Below, piece after piece: positions 19,901 through 63,606 of a DNA stretch of 64,000 nucleotides. Numbering within the stretch: the first letter of the stretch is position 1; the number at the start of each line of letters is the position of its first letter. Source of the DNA: Turritopsis dohrnii (lineage: Eukaryota > Cnidaria > Hydrozoa > Anthoathecata > Oceaniidae); contig BQMF02000286.1 of NCBI GenBank assembly GCA_027922465.2, positions 516,211-580,210 on the forward strand. The letters run 5' to 3'. The position numbers were made by a program, and so were the translations under genes. The notes under the pieces are model-generated. The model searched no databases and was not told the DNA's origin. It saw nothing but the letters and a program-made list of their open reading frames with translations.

Positions 19901-19950
19901 TTGTCACTTACGGCTGCTGCCGCAACAGACGTTACCTTGTCCGCTGAAGT

Positions 19951-22900
19951 GTGGAAGGAAGTTTATCGTACACAAATTCCTCTCTTACGATGGAAAAGCC
20001 AACATTCCAAGATCGCTCAGAACAGAGGCTGGCCAACCTGAGAAGGCAAAGAGGGGGAAAAAGGGCTTCAATAACGAAAAGAATCCAACAACTAGACGAA
20101 CTCATTAAAGAAAATGGAAGTCGCACACGAATCAATTCCCTTTTTCAAAGTCTCATCCAAGTTCAAAGAGAAGCAAAAAACATCAATCAAGAGCTAGAAG
20201 ACCTCGGTGAGGACACAGAGGAATGGATGGAAGAAGTCAATCTCTCTGTCGACAATTGTAAATCCAAGATCAAAGAGTATTTCGAACTGAGGAAAGAAGA
20301 CGCACCTTCAGACGATGGTAAAGCATGGCTGATGGAGCAATTCAGACAAAGGTCAACTCCACAATATCAACAAGCTGATTTAGAGTTGGCGAGTGAATTC
20401 GCAAAGATGACTGCAAGTGACGCGATTCCGATGATCCCACCAGCAACATCTTTTGGTCCATCCACCTCCTTCGATACATTCGCGACGACTGGATTGGTGT
20501 ACACAACAATGCCATTCCCAGAGACGAGCATGAATTTGGGAGCAACAGCCTCAACCGCGTATGGCAGAACATTTGCACCGCCACTCAGCAAACCAACAAT
20601 GACAACGCAAAGCAGAGGAGCTATACCTAAAAATCGTAGAGTGGACCCTACACCATTTCAGCTGAATTATTCACAGTCACCCCAAGCAGACAACAATCAA
20701 GTGGATGCGTGGATTGACCGTCTTGACCCAAAAAGACCACCACCTGCAACACCTGACAACAAAATAGAAGATTCACTAGCGACGTGGTTTGTTCAGCAAG
20801 GATTACCAAGGATACGGCTACCTTGGTTCGACGGCTCTCCAACGCACTATGTGGACTTCATCACAAGTTTCAGAGATCTCGTCCACAACCAAGATTATTT
20901 ATCTACCACTCAACGATGCGTCTATCTTCATCAACATGTCAAAGGCGAAGTCAAAAGATCCATACAAGGATACAGAAACGATTACGAGGGCTATGTGCAA
21001 GCTCTCAGAAGAATCAAATATATGTTTGGGCAACGATCAAGAATAGCACACGCCGTCATTAAAAGGGTGACTCTTGGGAAGCCAATAACCAACCGAGATC
21101 CGGCTGGACTAACAGAATTCTACTACACAATCAGTGACTGTCTGGTGACGCTTCAAAAACTCGATTACGTCTCGGACCTCTATAGCACCGACGTCCTGCG
21201 TCAGGCATGCAGACGATTGCCACCTTATCTCTACTCGAAGTGGGCTGATTACTGCTTGCTGATCCGCAGACAACAAGAACCGAATCTAACTCACCTTGAG
21301 TCCTGGCTCCAAGAAAGAGTTTTGGCGTCTAAAGAATCCTATCTGCCTGATCGATTCTCAAATCAAGACTCGAATAAAGACTCCAGCCAAAGCCAAAGAA
21401 ACGATCGAAACCAGAGAGACAACTGGTACACCCGTTCAGGTGATTCAGATCCTGGGAATAGCAAATGGACTGGTGCTCTTCAAGACAAAACCAAGAAGAA
21501 AACTACTACTTGCTACCTTTGTCGAGAAACCCATCGGCTACATAAATGTACAAAGTACGTCGACTTGGACTCAGATGCTCGCTTCAAAACCGCAAGAAAA
21601 TTGAAAGTCTGTTACAATTGTTTGACGAAGGATCACTACACTGATAAATGTCCATCGAAGAATAGCTGTTTCGAATCTGGATGCACCGAAAGGCACCACA
21701 CCTCACTACACAAGTACTTCACTGGAAGCAACAACAAGAAGGAAGACGCACTGGAGACTGACTCGACATTTAACGGTGAGACGAAAATTACAAGTTCACC
21801 TAAAGGAGCAGTATACCTTTCAGTCGTCCCTGTCACGTTGATTGGACAGGACTCATCTTCGGTCACCACATATGCCCTGTTGGACTCCGGAAGTGAAAGC
21901 ACCCTTCTAAGACAGGACGTGGCTAAGAAGCTAAAGTTACGGAAGACTGAAACAACAATCTCGATCAGCACCATCAAAGATGTTGGTGAGAAGCTGAAAG
22001 TACAAGAAGCGAAGCTAAATGCCCGATCAACCGTAAACAACAAAAGTGTTAGGATCGACAAATGCTACATTGTACCAAAAACTCACTTCAACATGCCAGC
22101 TCAAATGTATCCCGAAGATGTTACTACTCGATTCAAGCACCTAGAAGGGATTGATCTACACAGTGTGAGAAGTGATCAGATTGGTATCCTAATTGGGGCC
22201 AACATCCCCTCGGTGCACAAGCAATTAGAAGCGAAACTGGGAGAAGGATCCCAACCAACCGCTATAAAGACGCTTTTCGGTTGGACACTATTCGGACCGT
22301 ATGGTAATTCAAACCAGACTTCAATCAACAACCTGCACATCCAAGACGAAACTGACCTTCACGATGCAGTGCGAAGAATCTGGGAACAAGATTCCATCGG
22401 CAACGTAAATGACAGAGAACCAGCACCTTCCATACAAGACAAAAGGTGCCTCCAGAAACTGGAATCAGAAACAGAATTTGTCGCTGGGAAGTACGTAGTT
22501 CCGATGTTGTGGAAAGAGGACGTAACACTTCCTGACAACCGTGAAGTAGCCGAAAAGAGGTTCAATTACTTGCTCCAGAGGCTAAAGAAAGACCCCTCAC
22601 TGCACAAAATGTACCAAGATACGATGGACAAGTATCTCAGAAAGGGCTACGCAAGGAAAATGACTCCTGATGAAGTCAACAGAACCACAGAAAAGACATG
22701 GTACCTGCCACACCATCCAGTATTCAACTCAAATAAACCAGGGAAGATAAGAGTCGTATTTGATGCAGCATCAAAACACCAAGGTTGCAGTCTCAACAAC
22801 TCCTTGCTGAGTGGTCCAGACCTTCTTAACAATCTGACTGGTGTTTTAATGAGGTTCCGTTTGCATCCGATCGCATTCTCCGCAGATATTGAAGAAATGT

Positions 22901-25644
22901 TCCATCAAGTTCAAGTTACAGAACAAGACATGGATTCATTGAGATTCTTGTGGAAAGAAGACATAAATTCAAATGATCCCCCAGAAACATACCAAATGAA
23001 GGTACACATATTCGGTGCGACGGACTCACCGACATGTGCAAATTTCGCCTTAAGAGAAGCCGGAAGGAATGACTCAGATAGGTTTGATCCTCTGACGTTG
23101 GAAACCATATCGAAAGCCTTTTACGTCGACGACGACTTGAAGTCTTGCATCAACGTGGAGATTGCCAAACGACTTATTCAGCAGCTGGTGCAAAAGTTGA
23201 AAGAAGGTGGTTTCCGCTTGACGAAATTTGTTAGTAATGTCAAAGAAATGCTGAAAGACTTACCCGAAGAGTTAAAATCACCAGCAAAAAGCATCCAAGT
23301 TGAAACCAATGAAACGGTGAGGGCGCTTGGTGTGAAATGGGAGATGGCATCCGACACATTCACCTTTGTTCCGAGCAAACATGAAATAACCAACACCAAA
23401 AGAAGCATCCTAAGCGTTATCAGCTCCATTTTTGACCCACTAGGGTTAATATCTCCGTACATCTGCAAAGCAAAGATGATTATGCAGGAAGTTTGGCGTG
23501 AAAATACAAACTGGGATGACGAAGTTACAAGCGAAATCCTAGCAAAATGGAAAGAGTGGCAATCCGGGCTGGAAACTCTTCACACCTTCCACATCAAAAG
23601 ATGCTTGTTGCCAAGATTGACCTACAAATTACAATTACATATCTTTGGGGACGCATCAGAGAAAGCGTATGGTGCTGTGGCGTATCCAAAGCGCCAGACG
23701 TTACCGAGATTGGAATTAAATGCTGCAACGTTAGCAGTTAGGCTGTACCGCTTTGTAATCAAGGAAATCGATCTTCCAATAGAGGACAGCCACTTCTGGA
23801 GTGACTCAACACTAACTCTCCAGTACATCAAAAACGAAACATCGAGATTCAAAACCTTTGTGGCAAACAGAGTTTCTGAAATTAGAGAAGTAACCAGTCC
23901 ACAACAATGGCACCACGTACCAGGAGATGAAAATCCCGCTGATATGATCACAAGAGGAGTCTCGAAGGTACAGGAGCTCGAGTCGGAAGGCGTCAAACGG
24001 TCATGGAAGCATGGTCCAGCATTTCTAATGAAGGATGAAACTCATTGGCCATCACAGAAGTTAAGCAATCTTGATCCAACAGACAAGGAGATCAAGCCCA
24101 AGATGGTTCTCGTTTCCGCTGTCAGCAAACGAGAAGATGTGCTTGACTACGACCGTTACTCGTCATTCGATAGGATCGTCAGAATCGTTGCGTGGATCAA
24201 ACGTTTTCTTCGGAATTGCAGGGCAAAACCGAAACAGCAAACGCCACATTTACGACCTGAAGAGATAGAAGATGCCAGAAATATCATCATCCAAAATGCA
24301 CAGTATAACTTTGCAGAAGATGTAAAGCTGCTGAAAAATGGTCAATCGATCCCGAAAAAGAGCAAGCTGGCTCCATTCAAACCATTTCTGGATAATGCCG
24401 GCATTGTTAGAATAGGTGGAAGATTAAAGAACGCCGAAATACCGTTCGATGCAAAACATCAAATCATTTTACCAAATAGTCACATTTCAAACCTGCTTAT
24501 CAGAAAATTCCACAAAGGATGTGGACATGCCGGGACCAATCATGTGCTTTCACAAATTAGACAGACATATTGGATCCTTCAGGGACGAGCAGCAACAAAA
24601 CGAATCATCAGAAGCTGTGTTGAATGCTTGAAACTGAAGTCAAAGCCACAAGTTCCAATTATGGTGGACCTACCAAAACACAGGATCGACTTCAACAAAC
24701 CACCCTTCACAAATACTGGAGTTGACTTCTTTGGACCACTTTACATAAAACAAGGCAGAAAGAGGTTGAAACGATGGATCTCACTGTTTACTTGCATGAC
24801 CGTCAGATGCGTCCACTTAGAAGCAGTAGAGAGTTTGGAAACTGATGACTTCATTAACGCCCTACAAAGATTTATCAGCCGTAGACAAAAGCCAAAACTT
24901 CTGATCTCCGACTGCGGCACAAACTTCAAGGGAGCATCGAAGGAACTGAAGGAGGAATTCAAGCGACTAAATCAGAAGAAAATTGGCGAGTATTGTTCGG
25001 GCAAGGAAATTGAATGGAAATTTAACCCGCCCGCAGCACCCCACATGGGCGGAGCGTGGGAGCGCCTTGTAAGAACCGTCAAGACCACGATGAGGAGTTT
25101 GCTAAAAAACTTGGTGTTGACCGACTTCCAATTGCTTACCTTTATTAACGAGGTAGAAAACATCGTCAATGGCCGTCCCCTCACACAAGTCAGCGACGAC
25201 GCAACTGACCTCGAAGCACTGACTCCAAATCATTTTCTCAAAGGCTTTCACAACTCGGATTCATCAGTGTCACAGAACGATGAAGAATCCGTACCGTCAT
25301 CACGACAAAGACGATGGAAACACATACAAATGGTATTGAACCATTTCTGGACACGCTGGAGACGCGAATACCTGCCAACCCTGACCGTTCGACAAAAATG
25401 GCATGACGAAAATCGAAACGTACAAGTTGGCGAGCTGGTTGTTTTGCAGATCGATTCACCAAGGGGGCAATGGCCCCTCGGTATCATCGTTGAATGCATT
25501 CCTGGAAGGGATGGACGAGTACGAATGGCGAGAGTGAGAACCAGCAAAGGAATCTACCTGCGACCGGTAGCAAGAATTCATCAGTTAGAACTTTCACAAC
25601 TTCGTCAAGGGGAGGGGGATATAGAATTCCCTCCTGAACGATGA
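19951..25644 (+). CDS. BEL/Pao gag-pol polyprotein
   Basis: An intact 1897-residue polyprotein. The start at 19951 gives the longest frame; a second ATG at 19990 (residue 14) is an alternative. The order is: N-terminal gag part with a coiled-coil-like charged stretch (about 1-110); capsid-like region (about 280-480); two zinc-knuckle-like Cys/His clusters beginning CYLC at residue 521 and CYNC at 554; aspartic protease with LLDSGSES (active Asp about 645); reverse transcriptase with YVDDD (about 1058-1062); RNase H beginning HIFGDASEKAYGA (about 1229); HHCC-type integrase zinc domain (HKGCGHAG, then CVEC, about 1520-1560); and integrase core with Asp about 1592, Asp about 1654 and Glu about 1704 (VDFFGP, SDCGTNF, GGAWERLV). 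A DUF5641-like tail (GELVVLQIDSPRGQWPLG) closes it. The last eight codons lie in the 3' LTR. Confidence 0.95.
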   Translation: MEGSLSYTNSSLTMEKPTFQDRSEQRLANLRRQRGGKRASITKRIQQLDELIKENGSRTRINSLFQSLIQVQREAKNINQELEDLGEDTEEWMEEVNLSVDNCKSKIKEYFELRKEDAPSDDGKAWLMEQFRQRSTPQYQQADLELASEFAKMTASDAIPMIPPATSFGPSTSFDTFATTGLVYTTMPFPETSMNLGATASTAYGRTFAPPLSKPTMTTQSRGAIPKNRRVDPTPFQLNYSQSPQADNNQVDAWIDRLDPKRPPPATPDNKIEDSLATWFVQQGLPRIRLPWFDGSPTHYVDFITSFRDLVHNQDYLSTTQRCVYLHQHVKGEVKRSIQGYRNDYEGYVQALRRIKYMFGQRSRIAHAVIKRVTLGKPITNRDPAGLTEFYYTISDCLVTLQKLDYVSDLYSTDVLRQACRRLPPYLYSKWADYCLLIRRQQEPNLTHLESWLQERVLASKESYLPDRFSNQDSNKDSSQSQRNDRNQRDNWYTRSGDSDPGNSKWTGALQDKTKKKTTTCYLCRETHRLHKCTKYVDLDSDARFKTARKLKVCYNCLTKDHYTDKCPSKNSCFESGCTERHHTSLHKYFTGSNNKKEDALETDSTFNGETKITSSPKGAVYLSVVPVTLIGQDSSSVTTYALLDSGSESTLLRQDVAKKLKLRKTETTISISTIKDVGEKLKVQEAKLNARSTVNNKSVRIDKCYIVPKTHFNMPAQMYPEDVTTRFKHLEGIDLHSVRSDQIGILIGANIPSVHKQLEAKLGEGSQPTAIKTLFGWTLFGPYGNSNQTSINNLHIQDETDLHDAVRRIWEQDSIGNVNDREPAPSIQDKRCLQKLESETEFVAGKYVVPMLWKEDVTLPDNREVAEKRFNYLLQRLKKDPSLHKMYQDTMDKYLRKGYARKMTPDEVNRTTEKTWYLPHHPVFNSNKPGKIRVVFDAASKHQGCSLNNSLLSGPDLLNNLTGVLMRFRLHPIAFSADIEEMFHQVQVTEQDMDSLRFLWKEDINSNDPPETYQMKVHIFGATDSPTCANFALREAGRNDSDRFDPLTLETISKAFYVDDDLKSCINVEIAKRLIQQLVQKLKEGGFRLTKFVSNVKEMLKDLPEELKSPAKSIQVETNETVRALGVKWEMASDTFTFVPSKHEITNTKRSILSVISSIFDPLGLISPYICKAKMIMQEVWRENTNWDDEVTSEILAKWKEWQSGLETLHTFHIKRCLLPRLTYKLQLHIFGDASEKAYGAVAYPKRQTLPRLELNAATLAVRLYRFVIKEIDLPIEDSHFWSDSTLTLQYIKNETSRFKTFVANRVSEIREVTSPQQWHHVPGDENPADMITRGVSKVQELESEGVKRSWKHGPAFLMKDETHWPSQKLSNLDPTDKEIKPKMVLVSAVSKREDVLDYDRYSSFDRIVRIVAWIKRFLRNCRAKPKQQTPHLRPEEIEDARNIIIQNAQYNFAEDVKLLKNGQSIPKKSKLAPFKPFLDNAGIVRIGGRLKNAEIPFDAKHQIILPNSHISNLLIRKFHKGCGHAGTNHVLSQIRQTYWILQGRAATKRIIRSCVECLKLKSKPQVPIMVDLPKHRIDFNKPPFTNTGVDFFGPLYIKQGRKRLKRWISLFTCMTVRCVHLEAVESLETDDFINALQRFISRRQKPKLLISDCGTNFKGASKELKEEFKRLNQKKIGEYCSGKEIEWKFNPPAAPHMGGAWERLVRTVKTTMRSLLKNLVLTDFQLLTFINEVENIVNGRPLTQVSDDATDLEALTPNHFLKGFHNSDSSVSQNDEESVPSSRQRRWKHIQMVLNHFWTRWRREYLPTLTVRQKWHDENRNVQVGELVVLQIDSPRGQWPLGIIVECIPGRDGRVRMARVRTSKGIYLRPVARIHQLELSQLRQGEGDIEFPPER
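25607..25619 (+). promoter_or_regulatory. polypurine tract of the BEL/Pao element
   Basis: A purine run AAGGGGAGGGGGA directly precedes the 3' LTR, the expected plus-strand primer position. It lies within the gag-pol frame. Confidence 0.75.
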
Positions 25645-54199: not shown

Positions 54200-55336
54200 T
54201 CAATAATAATAATAATACCATATACTAAACATCGTGGTAATCGCTAAAACCAAAGCTATTTTCTCTTCTTCATGAGATGGGAGTGAATCTGTTTGACTCA
54301 CTACTCTTTTGTGAACTTCTTTTTGAGAGCTAGTCACTTTGGGTAAAATATGATGCTCTTGCATAACATTAATCATTTTGTTTCTACCAAGGCTCAAGTT
54401 GTCATTAGATATGAGAATTTTATTATTATAACCAGACACTCCCGACTTGATGTTTAGATTCATGTCACTAGGTAACATGTAAATACCTTGTCCAACTGAA
54501 TAATCAACTTTACTTGAAGCGTAATTTAAAGTATCTTGATAACGTTTAATGTCATCTTGAATATCAACTCTGCGGTTAACAATGTCTTCAAAATTGTTCA
54601 TAAAAACTCTTTGAGCTGTCAAAGCACTTGAATTATTACCTAAAATAGAAGAACGAGCTGAGGCTTGCGAACTAAGAACAAGATAAGCATATGCTCTAAC
54701 ACTCTCTGAAATTTTTACAAGACCTGTTTTTGTAAAGCCTTTAGATTTTTCTATAATCCATCGTGTCATGGAGTCGTCCGTGAAATAACTCAGACCTGGC
54801 GTTGGATAGTCTCTACGTCTTTTTTGATATGAACTGTAAAAATATTGCCCTTTGTATTTTTTAGGATCAGAATCAACACCATATTCACTACAGATTTTTA
54901 AAAACTCTTCTTTATTATAAGGATTATCGTATTGGTTGAAACTATCTTCAAAAGGTAGAGGTGTCTGCAGACGCTTAATGATTCGTCTAATATGATAATA
55001 GACGTGAAAACGATATACTGCTCTAATCATAGGAGTAGAGCGACTTTCTTTCAGATGTTCAGAACTGACTCCACAAGCGCTTGAAGCACACCAAGTGACA
55101 AAATTGAGTTGGGTTTGCCATAATTTAAACGGTTGTTCCTGCCAAATTTTCATACGTTGATCATTTTCATCCATTTCGTAATTAGTAAATATATTTGGAA
55201 AAGTTGCGGGGAAAGAACCGCTCTCAGAGACGATAATTGTTTGTTTGTATAAATCTTTAGCATTCAATATCTGAAGGTATTGCCCTCCATTTGGTTTATA
55301 AAGCGCGTTGGGAACATATTTAAAAATATTCTCCAT
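54200..55336 (-). CDS. conserved Polinton protein of unknown function, C-terminal membrane anchor
   Basis: A 378-residue protein divergently transcribed from the penton gene, with only 39 bases between the two starts. Residues about 70-120 are rich in Trp and Cys (FKLWQTQLNFVTWCASSACG), followed by MIRAVYRFHVYYHIRRIIKR and PLPFEDSFNQYDNPYNKEEF. The C-terminus has one hydrophobic segment (IALVLAITTMFSIW, about 360-374) followed by a run of tyrosines. I recall similar proteins encoded next to capsid genes in cnidarian Polintons, but no function is known to me. Its place beside the penton and its tail anchor suggest a structural, perhaps membrane-linked, role (inference). Confidence 0.8.
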   Translation of the reverse strand: MENIFKYVPNALYKPNGGQYLQILNAKDLYKQTIIVSESGSFPATFPNIFTNYEMDENDQRMKIWQEQPFKLWQTQLNFVTWCASSACGVSSEHLKESRSTPMIRAVYRFHVYYHIRRIIKRLQTPLPFEDSFNQYDNPYNKEEFLKICSEYGVDSDPKKYKGQYFYSSYQKRRRDYPTPGLSYFTDDSMTRWIIEKSKGFTKTGLVKISESVRAYAYLVLSSQASARSSILGNNSSALTAQRVFMNNFEDIVNRRVDIQDDIKRYQDTLNYASSKVDYSVGQGIYMLPSDMNLNIKSGVSGYNNKILISNDNLSLGRNKMINVMQEHHILPKVTSSQKEVHKRVVSQTDSLPSHEEEKIALVLAITTMFSIWYYYYY

Positions 55337-55375: not shown

Positions 55376-55936
55376 ATGTATATCACAGCAAATCTCGTAA
55401 GGGGTGAGAAGACCATAAATCTACCTTACCCCATTCGAAATATGGACGGTTCGAAAGAGATCGCATTATTTGAGATATTTGCAGACACCGTCACCTATCA
55501 AATCACAACACCGATAACATTGAAAACGTCTGACGATGGGAAAGTTGAAAAGTTGATACCAAAACGAAAATTCACTGGTAGAGAATTGAACGCGTTTTTA
55601 GCAGGCACCTTTTTAGAAGGCGATATAGAACTTAAACCATTAGGTAAATACCCTCAAATAATCAGAACAAATACGCTAGCTAAAATAACCAAAATGAATT
55701 TACATCTCTCTGAACTCGACAACACTCAAAATCTTGAGGATGGAAAGCTAAGTGATATTCTACTAACTGTTCCCATCCCTAATTATAGTGGCTTTACACA
55801 TACTGAGCCTAAAAATCCCCATTACAAAAAACTAAAAAACGGTGTATTCCAGTCTCTCACATTGAGACTGACAGATCAGCATGGTGGTATACTAAAAGAA
55901 GATCTGGGTACAACCGTTGTTTTGTACATCCGCTAA
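55376..55936 (+). CDS. minor capsid (penton) protein, single jelly-roll
   Basis: A 186-residue protein just upstream of the major capsid gene, the usual Polinton order. It is mostly beta-strand-like alternation (ITANLVRGEKTINLPYP, YQITTPITLKT) and ends with SLTLRLTDQHGGIL and LGTTVVLYI, the closing strands typical of Polinton penton proteins. Such proteins form the pentameric vertices of the icosahedral particle. It has no signal peptide or membrane segment. The call rests on position, length and C-terminal motif. Confidence 0.8.
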   Translation: MYITANLVRGEKTINLPYPIRNMDGSKEIALFEIFADTVTYQITTPITLKTSDDGKVEKLIPKRKFTGRELNAFLAGTFLEGDIELKPLGKYPQIIRTNTLAKITKMNLHLSELDNTQNLEDGKLSDILLTVPIPNYSGFTHTEPKNPHYKKLKNGVFQSLTLRLTDQHGGILKEDLGTTVVLYIR

Positions 55937-55981: not shown

Positions 55982-57298
55982 ATGGAGTATGGAAAGAGGT
56001 TAAATCCAGAACGTTCACTTAGAACTGCCCGCGGTGTAAAAGGTTCTCGTCAAAAAGTAATTGTCACACACAATCCGAGTGAGATCGATCAAAATCAGCT
56101 ATTATTGGTTAGGTTTCCAAATTTAGGAAGTGATGATGTCATTATCCCAGGAACAACGAATCTAAGTTTTGATATTGAACTCGAGTCGAAAGCTGACTCA
56201 AAAAGAACATTGGTCAGTAACATTGGGAGAGCTATCGTTAAGAAGTTGGCTGTCAAGTTCGAAGGTAACGAGATATTGAGTATCGACGACTTTGATCTTT
56301 TTGGGTGTTACAGAGATTTATGGTTAACCAAGTTTGAAAAGAGAAACGCGATAAGACAGGGTATCATCATCGATGATGGGTGTACAGAGAATTGTATGAA
56401 ATTGAGGATTGGTGCTTCAGATAAAAAGGACGATGATGCGGAAGACAAAGCCATTGCTGACACCTATAAAAACAAGTTTGTCATTCCACTCGACTTTGAG
56501 ATGCTAGATAGTACTATTCCATATTATCAAGCAGGTTTAGGTAATAGGCTTTGCTACGAGATCACATTTAACGACTATAACCGAGTTATTTATTCTGACC
56601 CTCCAGATACTGCCGCAGGTCAAAAACGTAACCCAGATGGTAAATACAAAATATCTAACATCTCACTTGAATATGAGCTTGTGACACAACCCACGTTGGC
56701 TAGACAAATCGCTTCTGAATACGAAAACATGGCTTTGCTCTATGATAGGGTTTTGCGGCACAGACAAATTAGAGTAAACAAGTCAGACACAACATGGAAT
56801 TGGTCATTCAACACACCTGCTAAATCTTTGAAGGGTATTTTAGTTCTATTTGAAGAAGAAAAATCCTACAAACGAGAAACCTGCAAATTCTACAATCCAA
56901 AGATCGAAAAGGTATCTGTCATCGTCGAGGGTAAGCCTAACCAACTTTTTGCTCAAGGGATGCAGCCGTTTGAACAATACAATGAGATTTGCAAATATTT
57001 TGCTGAAGGAAAACCAAAAGATAATAGCGTCGGCGAAAACCGAAAGCGCTTGGGATTACATGATGTAAAAGTCTCTGATTACTTAACAAACAAGTATGCT
57101 CTATGGTTAGATTTCAGAACAATTGATGAGAATGCTTTGCATGGCACCGGTCGAAAGATTGAAAATGCAAGTGAAGGCATCACTTTACAGATTGAAAAGA
57201 CCGCTGAAACTGCAGGAAACTTAAACGCATATATATATCTAATAATGGATGCTCAATTAAACATACAAAACGGTCAATTTATGTCTACATTATATTAG
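55982..57298 (+). CDS. major capsid protein, double jelly-roll
   Basis: A 438-residue protein with features I associate with Polinton major capsid proteins: an N-terminal basic stretch (RTARGVKGSRQKVIV), then GTTNLSFDIELESKADSKRT, VSNIGRAIVKKLAVKFEGNE and DFDLFGCYRDLW, and a second half with FNTPAKSLKGILVLFEEE and NAYIYLIMDAQLNIQNGQF at the end. Double-jelly-roll proteins trimerise into the pseudo-hexagonal capsomers of the particle. The length is near the lower end for the family. It is followed after four bases by the packaging ATPase. The frame is intact. Confidence 0.88.
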   Translation: MEYGKRLNPERSLRTARGVKGSRQKVIVTHNPSEIDQNQLLLVRFPNLGSDDVIIPGTTNLSFDIELESKADSKRTLVSNIGRAIVKKLAVKFEGNEILSIDDFDLFGCYRDLWLTKFEKRNAIRQGIIIDDGCTENCMKLRIGASDKKDDDAEDKAIADTYKNKFVIPLDFEMLDSTIPYYQAGLGNRLCYEITFNDYNRVIYSDPPDTAAGQKRNPDGKYKISNISLEYELVTQPTLARQIASEYENMALLYDRVLRHRQIRVNKSDTTWNWSFNTPAKSLKGILVLFEEEKSYKRETCKFYNPKIEKVSVIVEGKPNQLFAQGMQPFEQYNEICKYFAEGKPKDNSVGENRKRLGLHDVKVSDYLTNKYALWLDFRTIDENALHGTGRKIENASEGITLQIEKTAETAGNLNAYIYLIMDAQLNIQNGQFMSTLY

Positions 57299-57302
57299 TA
57301 AA

Positions 57303-57908
57303 ATGAACACACTTTACATGAAAGAACCTCACACAGCATTATTCGTCGGACCAACATCGTGCGGCAAAACGGATCGTGTCATAAAATTATTAGAAAATGA
57401 ATACTTTGATCACTTTGATTTCATCGTGATTATATGTCCCACCTTAAGGTGGAATCAGACTTACAGAGATCGGAAGTGGTTCTGGAATGACAGCTATGTG
57501 ATTTTAATTGAGCCGGAAGGTCAATTATATGAATGGATTAAGAGTATGGGCTTTTTCTGTGCTGAATTCAAAACCTTATTCCTCATTGACGACATCATAG
57601 CTGATGAAAAATTGGACAAAAAGAGAAATTCTTTGCTCGAGTTGGCAATTAGCGGTCGCCATCGAAATCATTCGCTATGGTTACTTACACAATCATACAC
57701 GGCTATACCTAAAGATTTACGACGGCAAGCTAAAATGTTATATGTGTGGTATCCAAAAGATAGAAACGATCTAGCCACCATTCATGAAGAGAACGATGTC
57801 ATTGAATCGCAAGAAGAATTGAAAAATGTCAAGGAAAAACTGAAAGAAGGGAAACACACGTGCCTAGTCATGAGAATGGAACATCCAAGAACGCACATGA
57901 TTTGTTAA
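57303..57908 (+). CDS. A32-type genome-packaging ATPase
   Basis: A 201-residue P-loop NTPase of the FtsK/HerA-A32 class that pumps DNA into preformed capsids. Walker A is GPTSCGKT at residues 16-23; Walker B is LFLIDD at about 92-97; a sensor-like LWLLTQSY follows the RHRNHS segment (about 120-132). The length matches the short ATPases of Polintons and virophages. It starts four bases after the capsid stop, so both are probably co-transcribed. It converges on the PPP1R15-like gene, with a hairpin in between. All catalytic motifs are present. Confidence 0.92.
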   Translation: MNTLYMKEPHTALFVGPTSCGKTDRVIKLLENEYFDHFDFIVIICPTLRWNQTYRDRKWFWNDSYVILIEPEGQLYEWIKSMGFFCAEFKTLFLIDDIIADEKLDKKRNSLLELAISGRHRNHSLWLLTQSYTAIPKDLRRQAKMLYVWYPKDRNDLATIHEENDVIESQEELKNVKEKLKEGKHTCLVMRMEHPRTHMIC

Positions 57909-57946: not shown

Positions 57947-57959
57947 AACTGTAAGACTG

Positions 57960-58205
57960 TTATAAGACTGTTATAAGACTACTATAAGAGAATAATTTAC
58001 GTCTCAATACAGGATCTAGAATTTTACCAATATGTTTAATCCTCGATTCAAAGCGTACTCTGTCAACAGCAGCCTCTATCCAGTTACTTCTACGAGATTC
58101 ACAAGCAGAGATATAATGGACCATTACTTTATCATTAAAAGTAACCCTTTTTGTATCTTGATGGGAAAATATAATATCATCATCTGAGGATTCATCATCG
58201 GGCAT
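57960..58205 (-). CDS. PPP1R15/GADD34-domain protein (candidate PP1 regulatory subunit)
   Basis: A small 81-residue protein. An acidic N-terminus (DDESSDDD) leads to KRVTFNDKVMVHYI at residues 19-32. RVTF at 20-23 fits the RVxF docking motif for protein phosphatase 1, and V-x-H-Y fits the adjoining hydrophobic (phi-phi) contact. Then come basic residues, Trp42 and DRVRFESRI (48-56), which reproduce the W...D-R-x-R-F-x-x-R-I pattern of the PPP1R15 C-terminal domain, the part that recruits actin and directs PP1 to phosphorylated eIF2-alpha. That domain is known from GADD34/CReP and from shutoff-suppressing proteins of herpes simplex and African swine fever viruses. No intron is needed. It is divergent from the 58514 gene and convergent with the ATPase. 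Function is inferred from the motif pattern alone. Confidence 0.72.
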   Translation of the reverse strand: MPDDESSDDDIIFSHQDTKRVTFNDKVMVHYISACESRRSNWIEAAVDRVRFESRIKHIGKILDPVLRRKLFSYSSLITVL

Positions 58206-58289
58206 AATTGTTTAAGTAAACAATGTTTATTTATTTAACAATGTTAGAATATATTATTAAACATCGTCATCCTCTTATAATTATTTTGT

Positions 58290-58490
58290 CAACAAAATTA
58301 TAAGAAGATAGCAAACTCTTATACAACAAATTTCAACAAAATTATAAGAAGACAGCAAACTCTTATACAACAAATTTCAACAAACTTATAAGAAGATAGC
58401 AAACTCTTATACAGCAAATTTCAACATAATTATAAGAGGATAGCAAACTCTTATACAGCAAATTTCAACAAAATTATAAGAGAGTATAAG
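58290..58490. repeat. 44-bp tandem repeat, about 4.5 copies, in a divergent promoter region
   Basis: Unit starts at 58290, 58334, 58378, 58422 and 58466 are spaced exactly 44 bases apart. Each unit contains ATTATAAG or CTTATAAG, then AGCAAACTCTTATACA. Related TGTTATAAGACT repeats lie at 57958-57990. It sits between the starts of the PPP1R15-like gene and the 58514 gene, so it may control both or act in replication. Confidence 0.85.
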
Positions 58491-58513: not shown

Positions 58514-59158
58514 ATGATAGAATATGTCAACTTTATATTATTAAGCATACTGCTGATCTCGCTATTTTACTTTTATTTTGTGTTAAAAAAATACCTCTCT
58601 CTAATAAAAATGGCGGAAACAGCGATCGATAATTTAATCAACCAGAGTTATGATGTTCCGAGTGAATTTCCGCCTTCAGATGGTAAAAGACAAAAATTAC
58701 TCGAGTGTGTCTTAACCGGGAAAAGCAAGCTATACTTAGGGAAAATGTACACGGAAGAGCAAATTAACAAACTCAAAGATGAAGAGGTAGAAAAACTTTT
58801 TATTATTTACGAGGCTAAACTATCAGGTCAAATGGTAAAATCCTTAGGGAAATCACTGATACGTATTTATTCGATGGGGGCTTGTGCAACGTTAGGAATA
58901 AACAATCAAGATGCGTTGAGCAATGACCTGGAAACTGACCCCTTCTTAAACTCTGCCCTTCAAAGATTTACGTGTGACTTATATTATAAATTCGGCTCAT
59001 TATTAGCACCACTCAGTGTTGGACTTATTACCGGGAGGCATTATATCAATGAAAGGAATTTAAATAAATCCGATGATAATATAAATACAGTAGATAATAA
59101 AAATGTCAGAAGAACAGAATCCCATTCAAGTGACAACGAAGAACCCAAAAAAGGTTGA
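58514..59158 (+). CDS. Polinton membrane protein of unknown function (214 aa)
   Basis: First gene of a four-gene plus-strand block. It has a strong N-terminal membrane segment (FILLSILLISLFYFYFVL, about 7-25). Then comes a soluble part with QKLLECVLTGKSKLYLGKMY and a Gly/Ala-containing hydrophobic patch (FGSLLAPLSVGLITGRHYI, about 170-188), and a charged Ser/Asp-rich tail. An internal ATG at 58610 would skip the membrane segment. The last 56 bases overlap the next gene in another frame. I recall homologues in cnidarian Polinton blocks; the role is unknown. Confidence 0.75.
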   Translation: MIEYVNFILLSILLISLFYFYFVLKKYLSLIKMAETAIDNLINQSYDVPSEFPPSDGKRQKLLECVLTGKSKLYLGKMYTEEQINKLKDEEVEKLFIIYEAKLSGQMVKSLGKSLIRIYSMGACATLGINNQDALSNDLETDPFLNSALQRFTCDLYYKFGSLLAPLSVGLITGRHYINERNLNKSDDNINTVDNKNVRRTESHSSDNEEPKKG

Positions 59159-62245: not shown

Positions 62246-62566
62246 ATGGAATTTCCAACAGTTGATACATTCGAACAGACAATCAACAAGCAAAACAAGG
62301 AACAAATGGCAGAGATCATAAAGTGGCGAGAGCTACCTGAAAACGTGATTTATCATGTTAAATTTTTTTCTACAAAAGCTATGTATGCAGAGTTGAAAGA
62401 TGGAGCAGGAAATATATATAAGGTGTGGTTGCCTGAAAGACTTTTCATTGAATTAAATGATTATGGTTGGAGCTCTAGAGAGGCCTTTGTCAGACCGAAA
62501 GGTCTCAAACAATCTCAAAAGAATTCAGAAAGACAATTCTTTGATTATGACGTTATATGGCGCTAG
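62246..62566 (+). CDS. small conserved Polinton protein (106 aa)
   Basis: A soluble-looking protein with IIKWRELPENVIYHVKFF and YKVWLPERLFIELN, words I have seen repeatedly in cnidarian mobile-element proteins. A TATATATATA run precedes the ATG by about 10-15 bases. The function is unknown; the size and mixed alpha/beta look would allow a small nucleic-acid-binding domain, but no motif proves it. It converges on the integrase gene. Confidence 0.7.
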   Translation: MEFPTVDTFEQTINKQNKEQMAEIIKWRELPENVIYHVKFFSTKAMYAELKDGAGNIYKVWLPERLFIELNDYGWSSREAFVRPKGLKQSQKNSERQFFDYDVIWR

Positions 62567-62622: not shown

Positions 62623-63606
62623 TCACCAACCTTGCACATAATCAGGAGGTAGCTCTGTATCTTCAGGTATTAATATCAGCTCTTCTTTCACAAAAGCTCG
62701 TTCAGGTCCATCTTGAAGGTAATACATTACGCGGTTACCAGGTTGCTCTATTACCTCACTCAATCTATATGTCTTCTTTGACCATATGATATCTGTTGCT
62801 CTTTTTCGATGGTCATCGTGCTCTTCACCCGGTTGCAATAGATATCTATACAAACCATCTTGAGGTAGCTCTACTTCAGGTGGATAGCTCTCTCGTTTAG
62901 CGAGAGGCACCTCTTTCATTTTAATAGCATCTTTCGGTTTCATACCGATCATCTGCGTCTTCGTATCGTTTAATCTATCCACAAGTTTATACAAATATTT
63001 GACCCATGTAGATGATACCTTTTCCGAATCGTTCAGTTCTTGAGCATCTTGTATTTTGAATAAATTTTCAGCAAGTATCTTGTTCAACGCCTCGACAAAC
63101 GCTGTATGGGTATGCTTATATTTAGTAGTTACTCTTTTAATTTCAACGTTATTCTTCTCCAACAGCTTTGTCACATCGGCTTTGAATTCTGAACCGTTAT
63201 CACATTGAAATACTTTTGGATAGTTTAAGGGTCCAACTCTATAGATATCTCTTATCATATCGGCAACCTCTTTGGCTTTCTTAGTCTTCAAAGGTCGGGC
63301 TACTTTGTAACGTGAAGCAACATCGATACCGGATAAGATGTACTTGTATTTATTACCATATAGAATATCACTAGGCATATATAATATATCAAATTGATGA
63401 ATCTCATTCGGTTTAGTTACCTCATAATGTGAACGTTCAACATGTTTCGGTGCTGGTAAATGTACTTGCCACAAAGCTTGTTTTGATAGCCACTTCTTAA
63501 TTACCTTCGGTTTGAAACCAAATCCTCTTAGATTGCGAACAGCCTTTTGTCCTTTCCACAAGTTTTGAGGTTGATAATAAATCTCTTGAAGTTTAGTGTC
63601 TGACAT
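62623..63606 (-). CDS. Polinton integrase, retroviral-type DD35E
   Basis: A 327-residue integrase that would insert the element DNA into the host chromosome. The catalytic core has Asp73 in HQFDILYMPSD, Asp136 in FQCDNGSEFK and Glu172 in HTAFVEALNK, giving exact DD35E spacing. The N-terminal region (LWKGQKAVRNLRGF) precedes the core without a clear HHCC zinc finger. The C-terminal part (DIIWSKKTYRLSEVIEQPGN, then YYLQDGPERAFVKEELILIP) looks like the chromo-like barrel found in this family. All key residues are present, so it may be active. It is divergent from the SAP-like gene. Confidence 0.93.
   Translation of the reverse strand: MSDTKLQEIYYQPQNLWKGQKAVRNLRGFGFKPKVIKKWLSKQALWQVHLPAPKHVERSHYEVTKPNEIHQFDILYMPSDILYGNKYKYILSGIDVASRYKVARPLKTKKAKEVADMIRDIYRVGPLNYPKVFQCDNGSEFKADVTKLLEKNNVEIKRVTTKYKHTHTAFVEALNKILAENLFKIQDAQELNDSEKVSSTWVKYLYKLVDRLNDTKTQMIGMKPKDAIKMKEVPLAKRESYPPEVELPQDGLYRYLLQPGEEHDDHRKRATDIIWSKKTYRLSEVIEQPGNRVMYYLQDGPERAFVKEELILIPEDTELPPDYVQGW

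What the first reader, a model, noticed from the sequence alone, without database searches (positions are those of the whole stretch)
57960..58205. Polinton-encoded PPP1R15/GADD34-like protein, a candidate anti-shutoff factor
Seen: an 81-residue open frame with RVTF, V-x-H-Y, Trp42 and D-R-x-R-F-x-x-R-I in the order and spacing of the PPP1R15 C-terminal domain, inside a capsid/ATPase/integrase gene block. Known: that domain docks PP1 through RVxF and targets it to phospho-eIF2-alpha; herpes simplex ICP34.5 and African swine fever virus DP71L use it to restore translation. Inferred: this Polinton makes, or made, infectious particles and has to counter an eIF2-alpha-kinase response in its host. 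I know of no such report for Polintons.
Basis: partly seen in the sequence, partly recalled or inferred. Interest (0 to 1): 0.88.

Follow-up and report, generated by a model that had tools for sequence, protein, structure and literature searches.

The report
Polinton carries a captured GADD34-like gene
A virus-like mobile element in an animal genome carries a small gene that looks like the switch-off part of the cell's own stress brake on protein making, probably taken from its host, which suggests that these elements have had to overcome a host defence as real viruses do.

Summary
On the minus strand, window 58205-57960 encodes 81 aa matching Pfam PP1c_bdg above its cutoff (E 3.1e-7), human PPP1R15B (8e-6) and ASFV DP71L (1.6e-4). 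RVxF, phi-phi, the Trp and the actin-contact Phe/Arg are present, with R15B spacing, between a Polinton ATPase and another conserved Polinton gene.

The same unnamed 436-Mb genome has at least 150 matches. Of 34 Polinton copies picked by their ATPase, 32 carry the gene open in that slot. Eleven residues identical in window, human R15A and R15B are invariant in 61 of 61 copies.

A second Polinton group has a longer PPP1R15 gene elsewhere (12 loci; 2 matched in one whole frame). The one ATPase slot read there is empty. That longer protein resembles a 345-aa-frame gene, probably the host's PPP1R15, from upstream of the core on. Host capture, then relocation, is inferred.

Best reading: a PP1 adaptor that dephosphorylates eIF2alpha during Polinton replication. 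Against: an eIF2alpha-contact Arg is missing, purifying selection is not shown (pN/pS 1.30, 0.48-4.82), and there are no expression or biochemical data.

The parts
57960..58205 (-). Class-1 PPP1R15-like gene, 81 aa, convergent with the ATPase and divergent from the next gene
   Evidence: open in the same slot in 32 of 34 ATPase-selected copies
58137..58148 (-). RVTF (residues 20-23), RVxF PP1-docking motif; phi-phi pair V29-H30 follows
   Evidence: alignment to R15A/R15B; V21 and F23 invariant in 61 of 61; phi-phi of R15A is V564/H565 (PMC10743859 passage)
58080..58082 (-). W42, aligned with the Trp conserved in R15A, R15B and DP71L
   Evidence: invariant in 61 of 61
58038..58064 (-). DRVRFESRI (48-56): R51, F52 and R55 align with R15A R591 (eIF2alpha contact), F592 and R595 (actin contacts); S54 stands where R15A has R594
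   Evidence: alignment; contacts from PMC8500838 passages
58005..58019 (-). LDPVL (63-67), aligned with DP71L LSAVL (57-61), whose two Leu are most important for that motif's function
   Evidence: alignment; PMC5346070 abstract and passages
58206..58285 (.). 5' flank of the gene, highly conserved between copies (pi 0.007 against 0.036 in the gene; the 5' flank of O222 has 0.008); promoter candidate
58289..58481 (.). 44-bp tandem array (4.4 copies) between the two divergent genes, unevenly covered between copies
57264..57908 (+). A32-like packaging ATPase of the Polinton
   Evidence: PF04665 E 1.6e-7
55982..57298 (+). Major capsid protein, probably double jelly-roll
   Evidence: no Pfam match over cutoff; 3474 relatives; a low-confidence model still matches viral capsid proteins by Foldseek
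55376..55936 (+). Conserved Polinton protein, minor capsid by position only
   Evidence: copies; no Pfam match; name by position (recalled)
54200..55336 (-). Conserved Polinton protein of 378 aa; in two sister elements read, the class-2 PPP1R15 gene lies beyond its 3' end
58514..59158 (+). Conserved Polinton protein O222, right-hand border of the slot
62249..62566 (+). Conserved Polinton protein O107; a 62-70% identical homologue neighbours the class-2 PPP1R15 gene at three loci
62623..63606 (-). rve-type integrase; the contig ends at the window end
   Evidence: PF00665 E 7.1e-11; contig length

Best explanation
It is a PPP1R15/GADD34-type PP1 adaptor carried by a Polinton, derived from an animal PPP1R15 gene and trimmed to its functional core. 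The RVxF and phi-phi segments dock PP1. The segment from Trp42 through the DRVRFESRI helix recruits G-actin and presents PP1 to phosphorylated eIF2alpha. Made while the element replicates, it keeps translation going when the host phosphorylates eIF2alpha. Shown here: homology, conserved residues, Polinton context, fixed gene slot, copy number, a longer sister gene whose similarity to a likely host gene begins upstream of the core. Inferred: PP1 and actin binding, substrate, timing, the capture direction, and benefit to the element.
For: Pfam PF10488 over cutoff; PDB matches to PPP1R15B and DP71L. The eleven residues identical in window, human R15A and R15B are invariant in 61 of 61 copies, and in 33 of 33 not picked by this gene's score (0 variable of 11 when 26 of 81 columns vary, P about 0.01). 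R51, F52 and R55 match R15A R591 (eIF2alpha) and F592, R595 (actin); L63 and L67 match the DP71L LSAVL leucines. Open in 32 of 34 ATPase-selected Polintons. Class-2 Polintons carry a longer PPP1R15 at another place. Neighbouring genes of the same copies are under strong purifying selection (pN/pS 0.14-0.18), so the elements spread as working units.
Against: No expression or binding data. R15A R594 (eIF2alpha contact) is Ser here; R587 is Val, though DP71L has Val there too. The gene's pN/pS is 1.30 (95% bootstrap 0.48-4.82) in ATPase-selected copies and 0.92 over 57 distinct copies, so purifying selection on it is not shown. Looser residue sets give weaker tests: eight positions named in papers, P 0.14 (61 copies) and 0.04 (33); 27 positions shared with either human protein, P 0.03 and 0.05. 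R15A R612 has no clear counterpart. The long-linker copy L052 scores under the Pfam cutoff (14.6 bits). Ten of 12 class-2 genes matched only in two frames. 28 of the 61 copies were picked by PF10488 score. AlphaFold of the lone protein is low-confidence (mean pLDDT 63), so it tests nothing.
Confidence: 0.65

Rival explanations
1. A PP1 adaptor with another target: it still docks PP1 through RVxF/phi-phi but has drifted from eIF2alpha, and steers PP1 to a viral or other host protein.
For: R15A R594 and R587 positions are Ser and Val. Multi-allelic amino-acid sites 26, 28 and 33 lie in and around the docking segment.
Against: W42, R51, F52 and R55 outside the docking segment are invariant in 61 of 61; the LSAVL-like LDPVL is kept in most copies: L63 59 of 61, L67 58 of 61.
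Confidence: 0.15
2. A passenger: a captured host exon that hitchhikes in a successful Polinton family and has no function now.
For: pN/pS 1.30 in the gene against 0.14-0.18 in its neighbours; second-position diversity exceeds third (0.045 against 0.031); 10 of 12 class-2 genes matched only in two frames.
Against: 32 of 34 ATPase-selected copies keep the frame; the 11 family residues do not vary while 26 of 81 columns do; the gene's total diversity (0.036) lies below third-position diversity of the ATPase (0.097) and of O222 (0.053); its 5' flank is nearly invariant (0.007).
Confidence: 0.12
3. A decoy that binds PP1 or actin without acting on eIF2alpha and so raises eIF2alpha phosphorylation, damping host translation.
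For: A DP71L form lacking residues 52-66 co-precipitated PP1 and went with more phosphorylated eIF2alpha (PMC5346070 abstract and passages). L011, L012 and L014 end differently around residues 64-67.
Against: 58 of 61 copies keep L67.
Confidence: 0.05

Closest known systems
African swine fever virus DP71L (short form)
   Same: A 70-72 aa stand-alone viral protein (PMC5346070 passage) with the PPP1R15 core; RVxF-type site, Trp, DRxRF-x-x-RI, LSAVL/LDPVL; Val at the R15A R587 position.
   Different: Carried by a Polinton integrated in an animal genome; Ser at the R594 position where DP71L has Arg; an acidic DESSDDDIIFS N-tail, repeated in some copies; activity untested.
Herpes simplex virus ICP34.5 and the granulovirus PPP1R15-like protein (coGV-gp036)
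   Same: Viral versions whose conservation is confined to the same roughly 70-residue core (PMC4394352 passages).
   Different: Free viruses; not compared by sequence here.
Human PPP1R15A/B
   Same: Eleven identical residues across window, R15A and R15B; same RVxF-to-Trp spacing as R15B.
   Different: 81 aa against more than 600 (PMC8500838 passage); five linker residues fewer than R15A.
Probable host PPP1R15, G000:C11:727454-727687 (L067)
   Same: The class-2 Polinton protein aligns with it over 81 residues including SKYHxxCC upstream of the core (41% identity, E 1.5e-20); shared E-P-V-L tail.
   Different: 345-aa open frame, the only such match in two capped lists, no Polinton gene found in the 1.1 kb read; class 1 is 36% identical to it over 55 residues.

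Membership tests
PPP1R15 core (PF10488) | Profile match over the curated cutoff | tested here: met
   window 30.7 bits against 26.1; class 2 (L071) 28.1 bits; long-linker copy L052 only 14.6 bits
PPP1R15 core (PF10488) | RVxF and phi-phi PP1-docking motifs in register | tested here: met
   RVTF 20-23, V29-H30
PPP1R15 core (PF10488) | Trp and actin-contact Phe/Arg (R15A F592, R595) at family spacing | tested here: met
   W42, F52, R55 invariant in 61 of 61
PPP1R15 core (PF10488) | eIF2alpha contacts R591, R594, R587 of R15A (variable between members, so not taken as defining) | tested here: inconclusive
   R591 kept as R51; R594 is S54; R587 is V47 (Val in DP71L too; R15B has Lys for R594)
PPP1R15 core (PF10488) | Binds PP1 and G-actin, dephosphorylates eIF2alpha-P | not testable with these tools
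   needs biochemistry
Polinton/Maverick | rve integrase and A32-like ATPase | tested here: met
Polinton/Maverick | Double jelly-roll capsid protein | tested here: inconclusive
   model pLDDT 47; Foldseek rank 1 is an uncharacterized MELD virus protein (E 1.3e-11), and many of the next named hits are major capsid proteins of NCLDV-type and other viruses, but TM-scores are 0.37 or less in the E<=0.001 rows; no convincing PDB sequence match (best E 0.5)
Polinton/Maverick | Type B DNA polymerase | tested here: met
   none seen in the window, which ends at the contig end; PF03175 has 3 matches in the genome (91 of 696 candidates scored), two of them, at C555 (a class-1 copy) and C840, starting about 3.4 kb beyond O107, frames of 1072 and 1115 aa
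Polinton/Maverick | Terminal inverted repeats and 6-bp target duplication | tested here: inconclusive
   no element-length inverted repeat in 40000-64000, but the right end lies beyond the contig; target duplication not looked for

The most novel reading that the evidence does not exclude
Polintons of this animal took the host's PPP1R15 gene, first as a longer protein near one end. A relocated, trimmed core between ATPase and O222 then swept through diverged Polinton backbones as a counter-defence cassette. Animal Polintons would thus be viruses in an ongoing contest with the integrated stress response, with diversifying sites around the PP1-docking segment.
Probability: 0.4. Interest if true: 0.88.

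Novelty: new member of a known kind. Interest (0 to 1): 0.74.

Why it matters
Whether animal Polintons act as viruses or only as transposons is open: they encode capsid genes, but particles have not been observed (PMC8097293, abstract in the listing, 2021). A gene whose known relatives undo a translation shut-off used against viruses is indirect evidence of an infection-like phase. The system is testable: one small protein, many natural variants, a sister group with the gene elsewhere, and the probable donor gene in the same genome.

Tried and rejected
Viral-contig scans with the gene, ATPase, capsid protein, P0153 and P0154 gave no relative; an alignment was too divergent to scan. The phage collection gave none. 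A single-sequence protein search gave none; a profile with human fragments gave 37. Of these I read 20: 16 look by eye like PPP1R15A/B-type exons, P0156 is intermediate, and three short ones, P0152-P0154, resemble the Polinton form but score under the Pfam cutoff (17.4-21.1 bits); their contigs could not be read. Stretches beside the ATPase of four other Polinton lineages held no such gene (L063-L066); only 1.6-1.7 kb each, so weak. The lone-protein fold was uninformative. A tree of 17 sequences over 70 columns has supports from 41 to 99; the node joining class 2 with the C11 gene has 41, so it does not settle whether class 1 and class 2 are one capture or two. I first thought of two independent captures. 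N-terminal class-2 remnants at 6 places, four of them about 5.0-5.1 kb from a class-1 gene on its 3' (ATPase) side, now favour relocation.

Full report
CHECK. The frame is real, on the minus strand, 58205 to 57960. It matches Pfam PF10488 PP1c_bdg over the cutoff, human PPP1R15B over 45 ungapped residues and DP71L over 55. The match runs through RVxF (20-23), V29-H30, W42 and D48-I56, in register with R15B. R15A has five more linker residues. Eleven positions are identical in the window protein, human R15A and R15B: V21, F23, V27, R38, W42, A46, D48, R51, F52, R55, I56.

CONTEXT. Left of the gene are an A32-like ATPase, the capsid protein and two further conserved proteins. Right of it are O222 and several conserved proteins, then O107 and an rve integrase. 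The window ends at the contig end. I saw no polymerase gene in the window; PF03175 has three matches in the genome, and those at C555 (a class-1 copy) and C840 start about 3.4 kb beyond O107. The capsid model is poor (pLDDT 47); its best Foldseek hit is an uncharacterized MELD virus protein and many of the next named ones are viral major capsid proteins, with low TM-scores. The capsid protein has 3474 relatives at E up to 0.001, 120 of them listed.

COPIES. The window's genome has 436 Mb in 891 contigs and no name. PF10488 has 150 matches there (150 scored of 413 candidates), all over the cutoff and none with a stop inside. All 28 that I read (8 best, 20 picked mostly for odd scores or lengths) lie between the ATPase and O222. 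Since those were picked by the gene itself, I also read 34 of the 150 listed ATPase matches (958 candidates), 20 from the top of that list and 14 from lower down. For 33 of the 34 no PF10488 match was listed beside them; L049 had one. 32 of 34 have the gene open in the slot, L042 lacks it, and in L045 an insertion replaced its first half. The ATPase list is ranked by likeness to the window, so this speaks for one Polinton family only. PF04665 finds other Polinton lineages in the genome (146 matches); short stretches beside the ATPase of four of them held no PPP1R15-like frame.

SELECTION. In the ATPase-selected copies pN/pS is 0.14 (ATPase), 0.18 (O222) and 0.17 (capsid), 32 distinct sequences each. 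For this gene it is 1.30 with a bootstrap range of 0.48-4.82, 31 distinct sequences; over 57 distinct copies of both selections it is 0.92. Purifying selection on the protein as a whole is therefore not shown; this is the strongest result against the main reading. Variation is not random in place: the eleven family residues are unchanged in 61 of 61 copies while 40 of 81 columns vary, and in the 33 copies not picked by score (32 loci and the window) while 26 of 81 vary (P about 0.01). Looser sets are weaker: eight positions named in papers give P 0.14 (61 copies) and 0.04 (33); the 27 positions shared with either human protein give 0.03 and 0.05. These tests treat columns as independent and ignore relatedness. 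Positions 26, 28, 33 and 79 carry three to five amino acids each. The gene's silent diversity (0.026) is three to six times below that of its neighbours (0.083-0.151); at third positions it is 0.031 against 0.053 (O222) and 0.097 (ATPase). This fits a recent spread of the cassette over older backbones (inference). Its 80-base 5' flank is nearly invariant (0.007), as is that of O222 (0.008).

SECOND GROUP. Searching the genome with P0153 found 12 places with a longer linker, besides L052 and the class-1 copies. With the class-2 protein as query, 2 of 12 matched over the whole 150 residues in one open frame; the other 10 matched in two overlapping pieces, the break lying at about residues 74-94, where the protein has a Lys run. 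I read the gene at four loci (C773, C125, C819, C108) and only the flank at a fifth (C76). An O107 homologue (62-70% identical) is beside it at three loci; the 378-aa protein of the window's element lies on the other side at two (94% identical at C125, a part at 80% at C76). At C125 the ATPase-O222 slot is empty: the ATPase is 91% identical, and the window's 57948-58285 has no counterpart. So closely related Polintons carry a PPP1R15 gene at one of two places; the empty slot was seen in one element. One class-1 copy, L052, has the long linker. N-terminal class-2 remnants occur at six places; four lie about 5.0-5.1 kb from a class-1 gene on its 3' (ATPase) side. I read this as a longer gene first, then relocation of its core (inference).

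ORIGIN. C11 holds one further match with a 345-aa open frame (both capped at 150 rows). In the 1.1 kb read no Polinton protein was found by tblastn apart from this likeness. Class 2 aligns with it over 81 residues, E 1.5e-20, beginning upstream of the core at SKYHxxCC. I take it for the host PPP1R15 and for the kind of gene captured. Against: Pfam did not report PF10488 in the 222 residues read (E limit 0.1), and the direction of transfer is inferred.

MECHANISM. From published structures (PMC8500838, passages; PMC10743859, passages) RVxF and phi-phi bind PP1; F592 and R595 of R15A bind actin; R591, R594 and R587 touch eIF2alpha. Here the PP1 and actin residues are kept, R591 is kept, R594 is Ser and R587 is Val. 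DP71L also has Val there, and its LSAVL motif, whose leucines matter most (PMC5346070, abstract and passages), aligns with L63-L67. The likeliest job is PP1 recruitment to phosphorylated eIF2alpha. All functional steps are inference.

LITERATURE. Full-text searches: Polinton with PPP1R15, 0 papers; with eIF2, 3, none on this by title; with protein phosphatase 1, 2, none on this by title. Term look-ups in two papers (PMC11071308 and PMC8097293) gave no mention of phosphatase or eIF2. Viral PPP1R15 cores are known from herpesvirus and an insect granulovirus (PMC4394352 passages) and ASFV. The library lacks most subscription papers, so novelty is likely, not certain.

VERDICT. A real, apparently new Polinton-borne member of a known family, with function unproven.

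Noticed in passing
whole genome: PF04665 finds 146 Polinton-type ATPase matches (150 of 653 candidates scored) of several length classes; the genome hosts many Polinton lineages.
   Followed up: partly
58289-58481: 44-bp tandem array between the two divergent genes, unevenly covered between Polinton copies; the gene-side flanks are nearly invariant.
   Followed up: partly
L068, L069, L071, L072 (class-2 genes): The class-2 protein matches in two frames at 10 of 12 loci, breaking near a Lys run that differs in length between L071 and L072; decay, assembly error or slippage not separated.
   Followed up: no
L010 and L052, N-terminus of the gene: The acidic DESSDDDIIFS.QD motif is tandemly repeated in these copies.
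   Followed up: no
L045: An inserted frame with a 2A-like GDIETNPGP motif and a Cys-rich stretch (likely a non-LTR retroelement ORF1, recalled) replaces the first half of the gene.
   Followed up: no
19948-25644: 1898-aa stop-to-stop frame of a BEL/Pao-type retrotransposon (PF05380, E 6.8e-38).
   Followed up: partly
493-924 minus: Host dehydrogenase E1-like exon (PF00676, E 6.6e-12).
   Followed up: no
P0152-P0154: Three short stand-alone PPP1R15-like proteins (65-72 aa) from unnamed contigs of 767-2063 bases, closer in linker and tail to the Polinton form than to vertebrate-type PPP1R15.
   Followed up: partly
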